Source: Mycolicibacterium tusciae JS617 (GTDB taxonomy: Bacteria; Actinomycetota; Actinomycetes; Mycobacteriales; Mycobacteriaceae). Taken from it: a DNA stretch of 64,000 nucleotides. The notes beneath the pieces were generated by a model. That model made no database searches. It was not told where the DNA came from and worked only from the letters and a program-made list of their open reading frames with translations. The stretch's first letter is position 1; every line of letters starts with the position of its first letter. Shown in pieces: positions 15,411 through 56,294 of the stretch. The stretch covers positions 4,588,903 through 4,652,902 of the forward strand of contig NZ_KI912270.1 of the NCBI RefSeq assembly GCF_000243415.2, in the 5' to 3' direction. Position numbers and translations under genes: made by a program.

Positions 15411-15458
15411 ATACCCCCTGGGGTACCCTCATGTTTGAGGAAGTACCCCGGGGGGTAT
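15411..15458. promoter_or_regulatory. Two CsoR/CstR-type operator palindromes before sulfur operon A
   Basis: ATACCCC-CT-GGGGTAC lies at 15411-15426 and GTACCCC-GG-GGGGTAT at 15443-15458. The two are 32 bases apart centre to centre, about three helical turns. The pattern (TACCCC, short spacer, GGGGTA) is the kind bound by CsoR/CstR-family tetramers. They lie 50-100 bases upstream of the CstR-like gene, suggesting autoregulation of the operon. The same arrangement precedes operon B. Confidence 0.65.
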
Positions 15459-15508
15459 ATCTCGTTTTGGCACCGCAGCTAAGTGAAGTGCTTGAGGAAA
15501 GGATCGGA

Positions 15509-15778
15509 ATGGTCGGCGACGAAGACAGTATCGCGTTGGTGCTCAACCGGCTGCGCCGTGCCCACGGCCAGCTCGCCGGGGTGATCACGATGATCGAACA
15601 GGGTCGTGAATGCAAGGACGTCGTCACCCAGCTAGCTGCGGTCTCGCGGGCACTGGACAAAGCCGGCTTCAAGATCGCGGCTACCGGACTGCGGGAATGC
15701 CTGACCGGGGAGGCTGCCGAAGGCAAGCAGCCGATGACCGAGGCGGAGCTGGAAAAGCTCTTCCTCGCTTTGGCCTGA
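15509..15778 (+). CDS. CsoR/RcnR-family regulator of CstR type (persulfide sensor candidate), copy A
   Basis: 89 residues from ATG 15509; the longer upstream frame runs through the operators and is not used. It is the all-helical DUF156 fold. Conserved cysteines are C35 (QGRECKD) and C64 (TGLREC). In copper-sensing CsoR a His sits four residues before the second Cys; here that position is Gly60. Two Cys without the His is the pattern of CstR, which senses persulfides or polysulfides through Cys-Cys linkage and controls sulfide-detoxification operons. This fits the downstream genes. It is expected to repress the operon through the paired palindromes. Confidence 0.85.
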   Translation: MVGDEDSIALVLNRLRRAHGQLAGVITMIEQGRECKDVVTQLAAVSRALDKAGFKIAATGLRECLTGEAAEGKQPMTEAELEKLFLALA

Positions 15779-15839
15779 CGCCAGCTCGGAACCATCCGAC
15801 ATCACGCTCCAAGACCAAACACAGAAGAGGAGATCAATC

Positions 15840-16256
15840 ATGAGTTACGCACTGTCGACCACGCTGCACACCTCGTTCGAGGACGCGGTGGAACGGACCC
15901 GCAAAGCGTTAGCGGACCAGGGTTTCGGTGTGCTCACCGAGATCGATATGAAGGCCACGCTGAAAGCCAAACTCGGTGAAGACATGGAGGACTACCTGAT
16001 CCTCGGGGCCTGTAACCCGCCGCTGGCGCACCGCGCGGTCAACGTAGACCGTCAGATCGGATTGCTGCTGCCCTGCAACGTGGTTGTGCGTGCCGACCCC
16101 GCGGCTGGCGATGACACGGTGATCGTCGACGCGATGGATCCGCAGGTGATGGTTCGCCTCTCCGATCAGCCGGGGCTGCGGGAGGTCGCCGACGACGCCG
16201 CGGTCAAGCTGCAGGCCGCGATCGATTCCCTCGGCCAGACGGCCGACGCGCGGTAG
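15840..16256 (+). CDS. DUF302-domain protein, copy A
   Basis: 138 residues, 61 bases after the regulator and preceded by AGAGGAG. The whole protein is one DUF302 domain (GFGVLTEIDMKATLKAKLGE, then LILGACNPPLAHRAV, then GLLLPCNVVV). A Cys in each of the two motifs ACNPPLA and LPCNVVV is typical of the family and could bind thiols or metal. Function is unknown, but DUF302 genes repeatedly accompany rhodanese and sulfur-oxidation genes. Copy B at 55440-55856 has the same length. Confidence 0.8.
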   Translation: MSYALSTTLHTSFEDAVERTRKALADQGFGVLTEIDMKATLKAKLGEDMEDYLILGACNPPLAHRAVNVDRQIGLLLPCNVVVRADPAAGDDTVIVDAMDPQVMVRLSDQPGLREVADDAAVKLQAAIDSLGQTADAR

Positions 16257-16287
16257 ATCGGAATTCGGTCCCGTCCGTGCCGCGGAT

Positions 16288-17076
16288 GTGGACGCCCCAA
16301 TCGTGACGATCCCGCTCGCATTGGCCCTTGGGGCGATCATCGGCGTGCTGCTGGGATTGCTTGGCGGCGGCGGGTCGATCCTGGCCGTTCCCGCGTTGGT
16401 GTACGGCCTGGGACTCGACATCGAGCAGGCGATCCCGATCTCCCTGATCGTGATCGCCGTCGCCTCCGCCGTCGGCGCCCTGCCGAAAATCCGCGCCCAC
16501 CACGTCGAATGGCGATTGGCCGGCATTTTCGCCGCCGCCGGTATCCCGGCCACCTTCGTCGGTGCCGCCATCGGACGCCTCCTTCCGCAGCCGGCGATCA
16601 TGATCGGCTTCGCCACGGTGATGATCGCCGCGGGAGTGCGGATGCTGCTCGACCGCGCCGACACCGGCACCGCCTGCAAAGTAGGCGACTCCGGAATCAA
16701 CTGGCGCCGATGCGCCTCACGATCCATCCCCGCCGGTGTCCTCGTCGGCCTGTTGACAGGACTGTTCGGTGTCGGCGGCGGCTTCCTCATCATTCCCGCC
16801 CTGGTGCTGATGCTGGGGGTGGAAATGCCGATCGCGATCGGCACCTCGTTGCTGATCATCGTCGCGAATTCCGCAGCCGGGCTGATCTCACATGTGAGCA
16901 GCGCCAGCATCGACTGGTCGATCACTACCGCATTCGTCGGGACGGCGATTGTTGCATCACTGATCGCCGGGCACTTCGGCACCAAAATCGACACCGGCAG
17001 GCTCCAGCGCTGGTTCGCCTACCTGGTCTTCGCCGTCGCCGCCTACGTCCTCATCGACACCATCGTCCTGCACTAA
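16288..17076 (+). CDS. TauE/SafE-family sulfite/sulfonate exporter, copy A
   Basis: 262 residues from a GTG at 16288; a GTG at 16303 is an alternative giving the same N-terminus as copy B. Two repeats of about four helices each carry the TauE glycine-rich motifs (GLLGGGGSILAVPALVYGLG and GLFGVGGGFLIIPALVLMLG). TauE/SafE proteins move sulfite, thiosulfate or organosulfonates out of the cell. Here it probably removes sulfite made by the MBL-rhodanese enzyme. It lies 31 bases after DUF302 and 45 before the MBL gene. Confidence 0.85.
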   Translation: MDAPIVTIPLALALGAIIGVLLGLLGGGGSILAVPALVYGLGLDIEQAIPISLIVIAVASAVGALPKIRAHHVEWRLAGIFAAAGIPATFVGAAIGRLLPQPAIMIGFATVMIAAGVRMLLDRADTGTACKVGDSGINWRRCASRSIPAGVLVGLLTGLFGVGGGFLIIPALVLMLGVEMPIAIGTSLLIIVANSAAGLISHVSSASIDWSITTAFVGTAIVASLIAGHFGTKIDTGRLQRWFAYLVFAVAAYVLIDTIVLH

Positions 17077-17121
17077 CCCACACCCAACCGTCTAGAAAAC
17101 AGAACACAGAGGAGCTAGAAC

Positions 17122-54620: not shown

Positions 54621-55400
54621 CTAGTGCAGGAAGACGGTGTCGACGAGGACGTAGGCGGCGACGGCGAGGACCAGGTAGGCAAACCAGTGCTGCAAGCGGC
54701 CGGTGTCGATCTTGGTGCCGAAGTGCCCGGCGATCAGCGATCCGGCGATGGCGGTGCCGACGAACGCGGTGGTGAGCGACCAGTTGATGCTGGGCCCGTC
54801 CAGGTGGGAAAACACCCCGGCCGCCGAGTTCGCGGTAATGATGAGCAGTGAGGTACCGACCGCGATGGGCATCTCCACACCCAGCAGCACCACCAGAGCC
54901 GGGATGATCAAGAAGCCGCCGCCGACGCCGAAAAGCCCGGTCAACAAGCCGACCACGATCGCGGCGGGGATCGAGCGGGGGGCGCAGCGGCGCCAGTTGA
55001 TGCCGTCGTTGCCCACCTCGCAGGCGGTACCGGTGTCGGCGGAATCGAGCAGCATCCGCACCCCGGCGGCGATCATCACCACGGCGAAGCCGATCATGAT
55101 CGCCGCCTGCGGCAGGTGGCGCCCAATGGCGGCGCCGAGGTAAGTGGCCGGGATACCGGCGGCGGCGAAGACGCCGGCCAGTCGCCACTGCACCTGCTGC
55201 GCGCGCACTTTCGGCAGGGCGCCGACAGCTGAGGCGACCGCGATCACGATCAGCGAGATCGGGATGGCCTGCTCGATGTCGAGGCCCAGGACGTAAACCA
55301 GCGCCGGTACGGCCAGAATCGACCCGCCGCCGCCGAGCAGCCCCAGCAGCACGCCGATAACCACCCCAAGAGCCAGCGCGAGGGTGATGGTCATCGTCAT
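54621..55400 (-). CDS. TauE/SafE-family exporter, copy B
   Basis: 259 residues from ATG 55400. Two TauE repeats with glycine motifs GLLGGGGSILAVPALVYVLG and GLFGVGGGFLIIPALVVLLG. It is highly similar to copy A over its whole length and differs mostly in membrane-helix residues. It probably exports sulfite or a related anion made by the downstream MBL-rhodanese. Same order and spacing as in operon A. Confidence 0.85.
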   Translation of the reverse strand: MTMTITLALALGVVIGVLLGLLGGGGSILAVPALVYVLGLDIEQAIPISLIVIAVASAVGALPKVRAQQVQWRLAGVFAAAGIPATYLGAAIGRHLPQAAIMIGFAVVMIAAGVRMLLDSADTGTACEVGNDGINWRRCAPRSIPAAIVVGLLTGLFGVGGGFLIIPALVVLLGVEMPIAVGTSLLIITANSAAGVFSHLDGPSINWSLTTAFVGTAIAGSLIAGHFGTKIDTGRLQHWFAYLVLAVAAYVLVDTVFLH

Positions 55401-55439
55401 GGTGTGTCGTCATTGGGGGCTCATCGCCCCGAATCAGAG

Positions 55440-55856
55440 CTACCGAGCATCGGCGGTCTGGCCGAGGGAGTCGATCGCGGCCTGCAACTTGGCGGCGGCC
55501 TCGTCGGCGACCTCCCGCAGCCCGGGCTCACCGGACAGCCGCACCATCACCTGCGGGTCCATCGCGTCGACGATCACCGTGTCGTCACCGGCCGCGGGAT
55601 CAGAACGCACTGCGACGTTGCACGGCAGCAACAGTCCGATCTGACGATCGGCATTGACTGCGCGGTGCGCCAGCGGCGGGTTACACGCCCCCAGGATCAG
55701 GTAGTTCTCCATGTCCTCACCGAGTTTGGCCTTCAGCGTGGCCTTCATATCGATCTCGGTCAGCACACCGAAACCCTGGTCGGCCAACGCTTTACGGGTG
55801 CGTTCCACCGCATCCTCGAATGAGGTGTGCAGCGTGGTCGACAATGCGTAACCCAT
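55440..55856 (-). CDS. DUF302-domain protein, copy B
   Basis: 138 residues from ATG 55856, with GGAGG four bases upstream; the frame opens four codons earlier. Same length as copy A with about ten substitutions, and the ACNPPLA and LPCNVAV cysteines are kept. It is the second gene of sulfur operon B. Function unknown; its conservation in two copies argues for a real role in persulfide handling. Confidence 0.8.
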   Translation of the reverse strand: MGYALSTTLHTSFEDAVERTRKALADQGFGVLTEIDMKATLKAKLGEDMENYLILGACNPPLAHRAVNADRQIGLLLPCNVAVRSDPAAGDDTVIVDAMDPQVMVRLSGEPGLREVADEAAAKLQAAIDSLGQTADAR

Positions 55857-55923
55857 GATTCCTCCCATTTCTCTGTTTGGTTGATGCGTAAGACACGCGG
55901 TGGTTCCCCACCACGGGTAAGCG

Positions 55924-56193
55924 TCAGGCCAGGGCGAGGAAGAGCTTCTCCAGTTCCGCCTCGGTCATCGGCTGCTTACCTTCGGCGGCCTCTCCGGTCA
56001 GGCATTCGCGCAAACCGGTGGCCACGATCTTGAACCCGGCCTTGTCCAAGGCCCGTGACACCGCGGCGAGCTGGGTGACAACGTCCTTGCAGTCACGACC
56101 CTGCTCGATCATCGAGATCACCCCGGCGAGCTGCCCATGAGCACGGCGTAACCGGTTCAAAACCAACGCGATGCTGTCTTCGTCGCCGACCAT
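55924..56193 (-). CDS. CstR-type regulator, copy B
   Basis: 89 residues from ATG 56193; the upstream frame runs through the operators and is not used. It differs from copy A at three positions (T27S, E34D, A58V). The two cysteines C35 and C64 are kept and Gly60 again replaces the CsoR histidine. It should bind the palindromes at 56244-56294 and probably also those of operon A, so both copies may be cross-regulated. Confidence 0.85.
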   Translation of the reverse strand: MVGDEDSIALVLNRLRRAHGQLAGVISMIEQGRDCKDVVTQLAAVSRALDKAGFKIVATGLRECLTGEAAEGKQPMTEAELEKLFLALA

Positions 56194-56243
56194 TAATGAT
56201 CCTTCCCACGAGCCGTCGCGCAGCTGTACCGCTACAACGCAGG

Positions 56244-56294
56244 TATACCCCCTCGGGTACACCCACAAACCCAACTGTACCCCAGGGGGTATAC
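56244..56294. promoter_or_regulatory. Two CstR-type operators before sulfur operon B
   Basis: TATACCC-CCTC-GGGTAC (56244-56260) and GTACCCC-A-GGGGGTATAC (56277-56294) lie 50-100 bases upstream of the CstR-like start, spaced as in operon A. Confidence 0.65.

What the first reader, a model, noticed from the sequence alone, without database searches (positions are those of the whole stretch)
15411..56294. Inverted duplication of a complete sulfur operon 35-38 kb apart
The same four-gene operon (CstR-type sensor, DUF302, TauE/SafE, MBL-rhodanese) with paired operators occurs at 15.4-18.5 kb and reversed at 53.2-56.3 kb. The regulators are nearly identical while the other genes are diverged. Maintaining two copies suggests dosage or specialisation, and the inverted arms could flip the 35 kb between them.
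Basis: partly seen in the sequence, partly recalled or inferred. Interest (0 to 1): 0.75.

Follow-up and report, generated by a model that had tools for sequence, protein, structure and literature searches.

The report
Two old sister sulfur-detox operons
Two inverted copies of a known kind of sulfur-detoxification operon sit about 35 kb apart in mobile-DNA-rich sequence of a mycobacterium; they are close but anciently diverged relatives, one of them inside a transposon-like segment, so this looks like ordinary gene accumulation rather than a recent duplication or a DNA switch.

Summary
In detail: the four-gene operon (CsoR/CstR-type regulator, DUF302, TauE, MBL-rhodanese) with paired operators lies at 15,411-18,480 (+) and 53,228-56,292 (-), 82% identical in DNA over 3.1 kb. 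"Regulators nearly identical, other genes diverged" is true only of proteins: NG86 dS is 0.47-0.65 in all four genes, about as large as gyrB dS to the nearest sampled species (0.49). A and B are best read as sisters and share a 32-bp operator spacing seen in none of 43 other upstream regions examined, but the split is old. There is no sign of recent conversion and little scope for flipping (longest exact run 29 nt). Two further copies in the genome belong to other lineages, one on DNA 99-100% identical to Mycolicibacterium pyrenivorans. Best reading: horizontal gain and retention of a plasmid-common persulfide-detoxification operon. Function and regulation are inferred from homology.

The parts
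15411..15426 (.). Operator 1 of copy A (ATACCN6GGTAC)
15443..15458 (.). Operator 2 of copy A (GTACCN6GGTAT), 32 bp start-to-start from operator 1; spacer not conserved with B
15509..15778 (+). cstR-A, CsoR-family regulator, 89 aa (the longer ORF from 15431 overlaps operator 2; start placed at MVGDEDS)
   Evidence: PF02583 (on the longer ORF); start by comparison with B
15840..16256 (+). DUF302 protein A, 138 aa
   Evidence: PF03625
16288..17076 (+). TauE/SafE-type exporter A, 262 aa
   Evidence: PF01925
17122..18480 (+). MBL-rhodanese (type III persulfide-dioxygenase-like) A, 452 aa
   Evidence: PF00753 and PF00581
18220..18249 (+). 15-nt exact tandem repeat in the rhodanese domain of copy A (LTVLDLTVLD); absent from B and from the 23 other relatives whose motif could be read among 28 other rows printed
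56277..56292 (.). Operator 1 of copy B (same 16 bases as in A)
56245..56260 (.). Operator 2 of copy B (14 of 16 bases as in A), same 32-bp spacing
55924..56193 (-). cstR-B, 89 aa
55440..55868 (-). DUF302 protein B, 138-142 aa depending on start
54621..55400 (-). TauE/SafE-type exporter B, 259 aa
53228..54574 (-). MBL-rhodanese B, 448 aa; residues 9-424 match 3tp9 and 11-426 match 3r2u
51456..51488 (+). Left terminal inverted repeat of a Tn3-family-derived segment; its partner is at 66,596-66,628, outside the window (L164)
   Evidence: pattern found exactly twice in the 7.3-Mb genome with up to 3 mismatches, 0 for the reversed control
51506..52108 (-). Resolvase just inside the left inverted repeat
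   Evidence: PF00239
52146..52889 (-). Multicopper-oxidase-like ORF of 247 aa with only the Cu-oxidase_3 domain found
   Evidence: PF07732
59630..59670 (-). Fragment of a further cstR (first 41 nt 37/41 like A, 35/41 like B and D, 32/41 like C; the next 19 nt unrelated)
59705..59720 (.). Operator-like site between the cstR fragment and a rhodanese gene

Best explanation
Copies A and B are two members of one sub-lineage of a CstR-type sulfane-sulfur detoxification operon that diverged long ago (about as long ago as this species from its nearest sampled relatives) and came together, or were kept together, in a mobile-DNA-rich region by horizontal gain; B arrived or was captured inside a Tn3-family-derived segment. 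Likely mechanism, inferred from homologues: the regulator represses each operon at two ATACCN6GGTAT-type operators; persulfide or polysulfide modifies its cysteines and releases it; the MBL-rhodanese protein oxidises persulfide to sulfite, TauE exports sulfite, DUF302 has an unknown accessory role. Because the two regulators differ at 3 of 89 residues and the operator pairs share spacing and nearly the same bases, the two operons probably respond as one regulon (dosage) rather than as specialised branches. Shown: gene content, divergence, grouping of A with B, operators, inverted repeats. Inferred: biochemistry, cross-regulation, route of arrival.
For: A+B: MBL 98/87, concatenated codon DNA 96/97, DUF302 85/87. 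A 32-bp operator spacing occurs in A and B and in none of 43 other upstream regions scanned; four of those have pairs at 35 bp, among them own copy C, and the four Rhodococcus plasmid operons have one site. dS 0.51 over 933 codons against gyrB dS 0.49-0.57 to the five nearest of 395 other genus genomes; those five have operon matches of 74-77% only. Among matches at E <= 1e-200 in 395 other genomes nothing is closer to A than B is: 83% against at most 77% over the operon and 79% for the MBL gene alone. Inverted repeats, resolvase and Tn3 transposase domain surround B. The operon is common on plasmids: 173 of 72,556 records match, 35 with at least 80% of the query. In S. coelicolor a CsoR-like regulator has two ATACCn6GGTAT sites in the PDO promoter and represses PDO, rhodanese and sulfite-transporter genes (PMC7533328, passages).
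Against: Being mutual nearest relatives is also what an old duplication inside this lineage predicts. B is not A's nearest in 3 of 17 sliding windows, nor A B's nearest in 2 of 17. In the TauE tree B is as near to L104 as to A and no starred set holds either. CstR-B is 99% identical to the R. opacus pROB01 protein, more than to A (97%). Single pieces elsewhere come close: a DUF302 match at 87% DNA in G037 (A-B 88.9%) and an incomplete MBL in L112 at 81% protein over 330 aa to B, though L112 falls in another clade. Other operator spacings, down to 24 and 31 bp, occur in further relatives and 13 of the 43 other upstream regions show no site by the motif used. The five gyrB neighbours are the nearest of a draw, not proven nearest species, and gyrB may evolve more slowly at synonymous sites. 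No expression or binding data.
Confidence: 0.6

Rival explanations
1. Old duplication within this lineage or on its ancestral plasmid or island, followed by divergence in place; the inversion and the Tn3 segment came later.
For: A and B are nearest relatives of each other and share operator spacing; both under purifying selection.
Against: No homology outside the operon; the five species nearest in gyrB among those drawn show operon matches of only 74-77%; B is bounded by Tn3-type inverted repeats.
Confidence: 0.3
2. Wholly independent acquisition of two unrelated operons, as appears true of copies C and D.
For: CstR-B is closer to a Rhodococcus plasmid protein than to A; TauE unresolved; in 10 of the 16 other genomes that list two matches (those I fetched) the two copies are always less alike than A and B, MBL 0.68-0.75, TauE 0.40-0.74, so mixed copies are the usual case.
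Against: A+B supported for MBL and the concatenation; shared operator spacing.
Confidence: 0.07
3. The arms recombine and flip the ~35-40 kb between them, a switch or an inversion that an assembly could miss.
For: Inverted orientation and 3 kb of homology.
Against: 82% identity, longest exact match found 29 nt, 22 matching blocks of at least 20 nt; no stretch of recent exchange at synonymous sites; M. smegmatis recombination 2.42e-6 at 100% against 6.47e-9 at 85% identity for a 517-bp overlap (PMC5290159 passages), a shorter overlap than here.
Confidence: 0.03

Closest known systems
Streptomyces coelicolor ScCsoR-PDO-TauE-rhodanese circuit (sco0618-sco0620 and a rhodanese; PMC7533328, passages seen)
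   Same: CsoR-like repressor with two cysteines, type III PDO (MBL-rhodanese), TauE, two ATACCn6GGTAT sites in the PDO promoter
   Different: No DUF302 named in the passages seen; here the regulator leads a four-gene operon with both operators before it; several copies in the genome. Not compared by sequence here
Staphylococcus aureus cst operon (CstR, TauE, CstA, CstB; content recalled)
   Same: Regulator type, TauE and MBL-rhodanese; the MBL-rhodanese matches 3r2u (that 3r2u is CstB is recalled)
   Different: No cstA or SQR gene in operons A and B; DUF302 added
Operon on Rhodococcus and mycobacterial plasmids (pROB01, pMYCCH.01, pJCM6399)
   Same: The same four genes in the same order by annotation
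   Different: About 75-78% DNA identity to A or B; pROB01 has an extra DUF2892 gene; one operator instead of two in the four Rhodococcus copies scanned
Arthrobacter plasmid SUL module (PMC6305408, passages seen)
   Same: CsoR-type regulator, sulfur dioxygenase, rhodaneses, TauE, DUF302, MFS
   Different: Larger module of eight genes; not compared by sequence here

Membership tests
CstR-type persulfide sensors (CsoR family) | CsoR/DUF156 domain | tested here: met
   PF02583 at 79.7 and 81.0 bits, cut-off 22.8
CstR-type persulfide sensors (CsoR family) | Two cysteines as in CstR, without the copper-CsoR histidine four residues before the second (motif recalled) | tested here: met
   Aligned to 7mq1 (RDC...ENLTEC against RDC...TGLREC) and InrS (DHMNEC); 7mq1 is labelled copper-sensing CsoR in the PDB list, that it is a CstR is recalled. 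RicR and FrmR curated cut-offs not reached (43.9 and 45.1 of 175; 28.6 and 29.3 of 133 bits)
CstR-type persulfide sensors (CsoR family) | Next to a persulfide-oxidising or transferring enzyme and TauE | tested here: met
CstR-type persulfide sensors (CsoR family) | Released from DNA by persulfide | not testable with these tools
   needs purified protein
Type III persulfide dioxygenase (MBL plus rhodanese) | MBL-rhodanese architecture with cysteine in the last rhodanese loop | tested here: met
   Matches 3tp9 (223.8 bits) and 3r2u (173.7 bits) over residues 9-426; CASGYRS aligned to CQSGIRS of 3r2u
Type III persulfide dioxygenase (MBL plus rhodanese) | Sulfite formed from persulfide | not testable with these tools
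   assay needed
Tn3-family transposon (segment around B) | Terminal inverted repeats beginning GGGG with resolvase and transposase just inside | tested here: met
   31/33 matching repeats, resolvase at 51506, Tn3 transposase domain 460 bits
Tn3-family transposon (segment around B) | 5-bp target duplication at the ends | tested here: not met
   TACTG against TAACG; the two ends abut different genes. Not filed as an intact unit transposon; called Tn3-derived
Tn3-family transposon (segment around B) | Full-length transposase (about 1,000 aa) | tested here: not met
   595-aa ORF; 7 of 11 other matches have open frames of 1,002-1,031 aa (one with a stop inside), 4 are shorter, 289-515; 3,036-nt gene on an M. 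intracellulare plasmid
Invertible element by homologous arms | Long near-identical arms | tested here: not met
   82%, longest exact run found 29 nt

The most novel reading that the evidence does not exclude
A genome that collects sister sulfur-detox operons keeps them interchangeable at the level of control: near-identical regulators and a shared operator-pair geometry are preserved while the effector enzymes drift, so that a transposon-borne copy plugs into the resident copy's regulon on arrival.
Probability: 0.25. Interest if true: 0.4.

Novelty: new member of a known kind. Interest (0 to 1): 0.2.

Why it matters
It turns a suspected switchable inverted duplication into a measured case of accumulation of mobile stress genes: four copies in one genome (one lacking DUF302), one of them in a transposon-like segment, one on what looks like very recently shared DNA. 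It also shows that near-identical regulators beside diverged enzymes need no recent exchange; synonymous sites make all four genes about equally old.

Tried and rejected
Recent gene conversion between the arms: not supported, four-fold-site identity is 0.62-0.71 in seven of eight bins; the last, short bin is 34/41. Faster evolution of TauE and MBL as a sign of specialisation: not clearly supported; dN/dS of A-B (mbl 0.230, tauE 0.204) equals the median of 91 pairs among 14 operons (0.239, 0.207), but many of those pairs are near saturation, and A-B lies slightly above all nine less diverged pairs (mbl 0.12-0.23, tauE 0.10-0.18); A and B tip lengths are alike, 0.11 and 0.10. A larger inverted duplication beyond the operon: rejected. 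A tRNA boundary of the island: ARAGORN found none in the window or in the 140 kb of flanks scanned. DUF302 function: one search gave two papers holding both DUF302 and persulfide; of one I saw two passages, which list the DUF302 protein as hypothetical, of the other only the listing. Rows dropped before counting: trees left out loci below length or identity limits, with in-frame stops, or identical in protein (own copy D fell out, apparently because its MBL protein equals that of L020); the 43-row MBL tree was chosen by hand from 80 rows plus L112. The CstR tree's bootstrap had not settled. Collection scans returned capped lists (one search kept the best 80 of 579).
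Full report
What is there. Copy A (operators 15411-15458; cstR 15509-15778, DUF302 15840-16256, TauE 16288-17076, MBL-rhodanese 17122-18480, + strand) and copy B (operators 56292-56245; cstR 56193-55924, DUF302 55868-55440, TauE 55400-54621, MBL-rhodanese 54574-53228, - strand) are confirmed by ORF lists, repeat search and Pfam. They align as one block of 3,104 columns at 82.2% and homology stops at the operon's edges. Each regulator is preceded by two 16-bp palindromes, 32 bp start to start, with a spacer that is not conserved between A and B. Such sites are beyond chance in the window: 11 strand-matches at 6 sites against 0.13 expected.

How old is the pair. Protein identities differ (CstR 86/89, DUF302 129/138, TauE 215/259, MBL 369/447), but NG86 dS is 0.65, 0.47, 0.50, 0.50 and 0.51 over 933 codons; four-fold sites are 67% identical (325/482) and roughly flat along the operon. 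gyrB of this genome against its five nearest among 395 other drawn genus genomes gives dS 0.49-0.57 and four-fold identity 0.64-0.68. A and B therefore split about as long ago as this species split from those relatives, with the caveats that gyrB may be slower at synonymous sites and that the draw need not hold the closest species. The near-identity of the regulators is constraint: CstR-B is 99% identical to the R. opacus pROB01 protein and dN/dS for CstR is 0.03 for A-B.

Who is related to whom. Among matches at E <= 1e-200 in 395 other genus genomes nothing is closer to A than B (83%; next 77% over the operon, up to 79% for the MBL gene alone); short pieces come nearer, such as an 87% DUF302 match in G037. 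In the one-genome-per-species collection the best listed MBL protein is 77% identical to B (best 80 of 579 kept), against 83% for A; an incomplete MBL from G041 (L112) is 81% over 330 aa. Trees: MBL (43 rows) A+B 98/87, with L112 in another clade; DUF302 (42 rows) 85/87; CstR (43 rows) no starred set; TauE (60 rows, quick) no starred set, B as near L104 as A; concatenated codons of 15 operon rows (14 different) 96/97. In sliding windows of that concatenation B is A's nearest in 14 of 17 and A is B's nearest in 15 of 17. The 32-bp operator spacing is found in A and B and in none of the 43 other upstream regions scanned; own copy C, L013, L106 and L114 have 35 bp, several others have other spacings (24-80 bp), the four Rhodococcus plasmid operons have one site and 13 regions none by this motif. 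That agrees with sisterhood. dN/dS of A-B is at the median of 91 pairs, slightly above the nine least diverged.

Copies elsewhere in the genome. The genome (7.3 Mb, 4 contigs; unnamed, in the GTDB genus that also holds genomes with contigs as long as M. chubuense pMYCCH.01 and M. gallinarum pJCM6399) holds two more MBL-rhodanese copies, 74-75% identical to B: copy C near 777 kb, grouped with M. gallinarum pJCM6399 (87% DNA over 3.2 kb), and copy D near 5.30 Mb, without DUF302. D lies in a block of about 60 kb (5,249,051-5,308,660) that matches, in pieces, ~44 kb of one contig of the M. pyrenivorans assembly at 98.99-100%, although gyrB of the two genomes is 84% identical. Recent transfer is the natural reading; contamination of one assembly is not excluded, but the extra stretches in this genome speak against it. 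Two listed matches also occur in 16 of the other 395 genus genomes; in the 10 of these 16 that I fetched, the two copies were always less alike than A and B (TauE 0.40-0.74, MBL 0.68-0.75).

Surroundings. B lies between 33-bp inverted repeats (51456-51488 and 66596-66628, 31/33 matching) found nowhere else in the genome with up to 3 mismatches, with a resolvase just inside one end and a Tn3 transposase domain just inside the other: a Tn3-family architecture. No target duplication is present, the ends abut two different genes (an integrase ORF on the left, an arsC-like reading on the right, the latter recognised by eye) and the transposase ORF is 595 aa against about 1,000 in most relatives, so the segment looks rearranged and probably inactive. 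It also holds a decayed further sulfur locus: a cstR fragment, operator-like sites, a rhodanese gene and a short flavoprotein-like (perhaps sulfide:quinone oxidoreductase, recognised by eye) remnant at 59.6-60.5 kb, recalling by annotation the neighbourhood on M. chubuense pMYCCH.01. The left of the window carries EccA (type VII secretion), an AAA_10 ATPase (VirB4-like, label recalled) and a TcpC-like gene, and the left flank carries TniQ and Mu-type transposition genes, integrase-like genes and an ISL3 transposase: a mobile-element-rich region. A second sulfur module (ArsR-rhodanese, MBL-rhodanese, MFS) at 22.7-26.1 kb resembles by annotation, not by sequence comparison, the neighbour of this operon on pROB01 and in part on a Rhodococcus sp. 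WAY2 plasmid.

How it most likely works. By homology and by the S. coelicolor work (passages of PMC7533328), the regulator represses the operon at ATACCN6GGTAT sites, sulfane sulfur on cysteine relieves repression, the MBL-rhodanese oxidises persulfide to sulfite and TauE exports it. DUF302 is unassigned. With regulators differing at 3 residues and near-matching operators, the two operons should respond together; that is inference.

Flipping. Recombination between 517-bp repeats in M. smegmatis fell from 2.42e-6 at 100% identity to 6.47e-9 at 85% (passages of PMC5290159). With arms of 82% and no exact run found above 29 nt, inversion should be rare, though the arms are longer than in that assay. 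Reads were not available.

Verdict. A correct eye for a repeat, an over-read mechanism. It is a new instance of a known, plasmid-common operon in duplicate; interest low to moderate.

Noticed in passing
51456-64000 and on to 66628 (L164): Tn3-family-derived ~15.2-kb segment around operon B, without target duplication, ends abutting an integrase ORF and an arsC-like gene; transposase ORF short.
   Followed up: partly
G000:C4:5249051-5308660 against M. pyrenivorans contig (L213-L216): About 44 kb of a contig from a genome with 84% gyrB identity is 98.99-100% identical, in pieces, to a ~60-kb block holding operon copy D: recent transfer, or contamination.
   Followed up: partly
59600-60560: Decayed further sulfur locus: cstR fragment, operator-like sites on both sides of the start of a rhodanese ORF, and a short flavoprotein-like remnant.
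   Followed up: partly
1216-12000: EccA (type VII secretion), an AAA_10 ATPase and a TcpC-like gene: possible remains of a mycobacterial conjugative plasmid in the chromosome.
   Followed up: partly
18220-18249: Exact 15-nt tandem repeat adds five residues in the rhodanese domain of copy A only.
   Followed up: partly
56949-57407: Protein with a 15-nt-period GQMGP repeat downstream of an operator-like site at 56833; possibly part of the sulfur or metal regulon.
   Followed up: no
46429-46473: Two CsoR-type operator-like sites just upstream of and overlapping the start of a CsoR-family ORF beside P-type ATPases.
   Followed up: no
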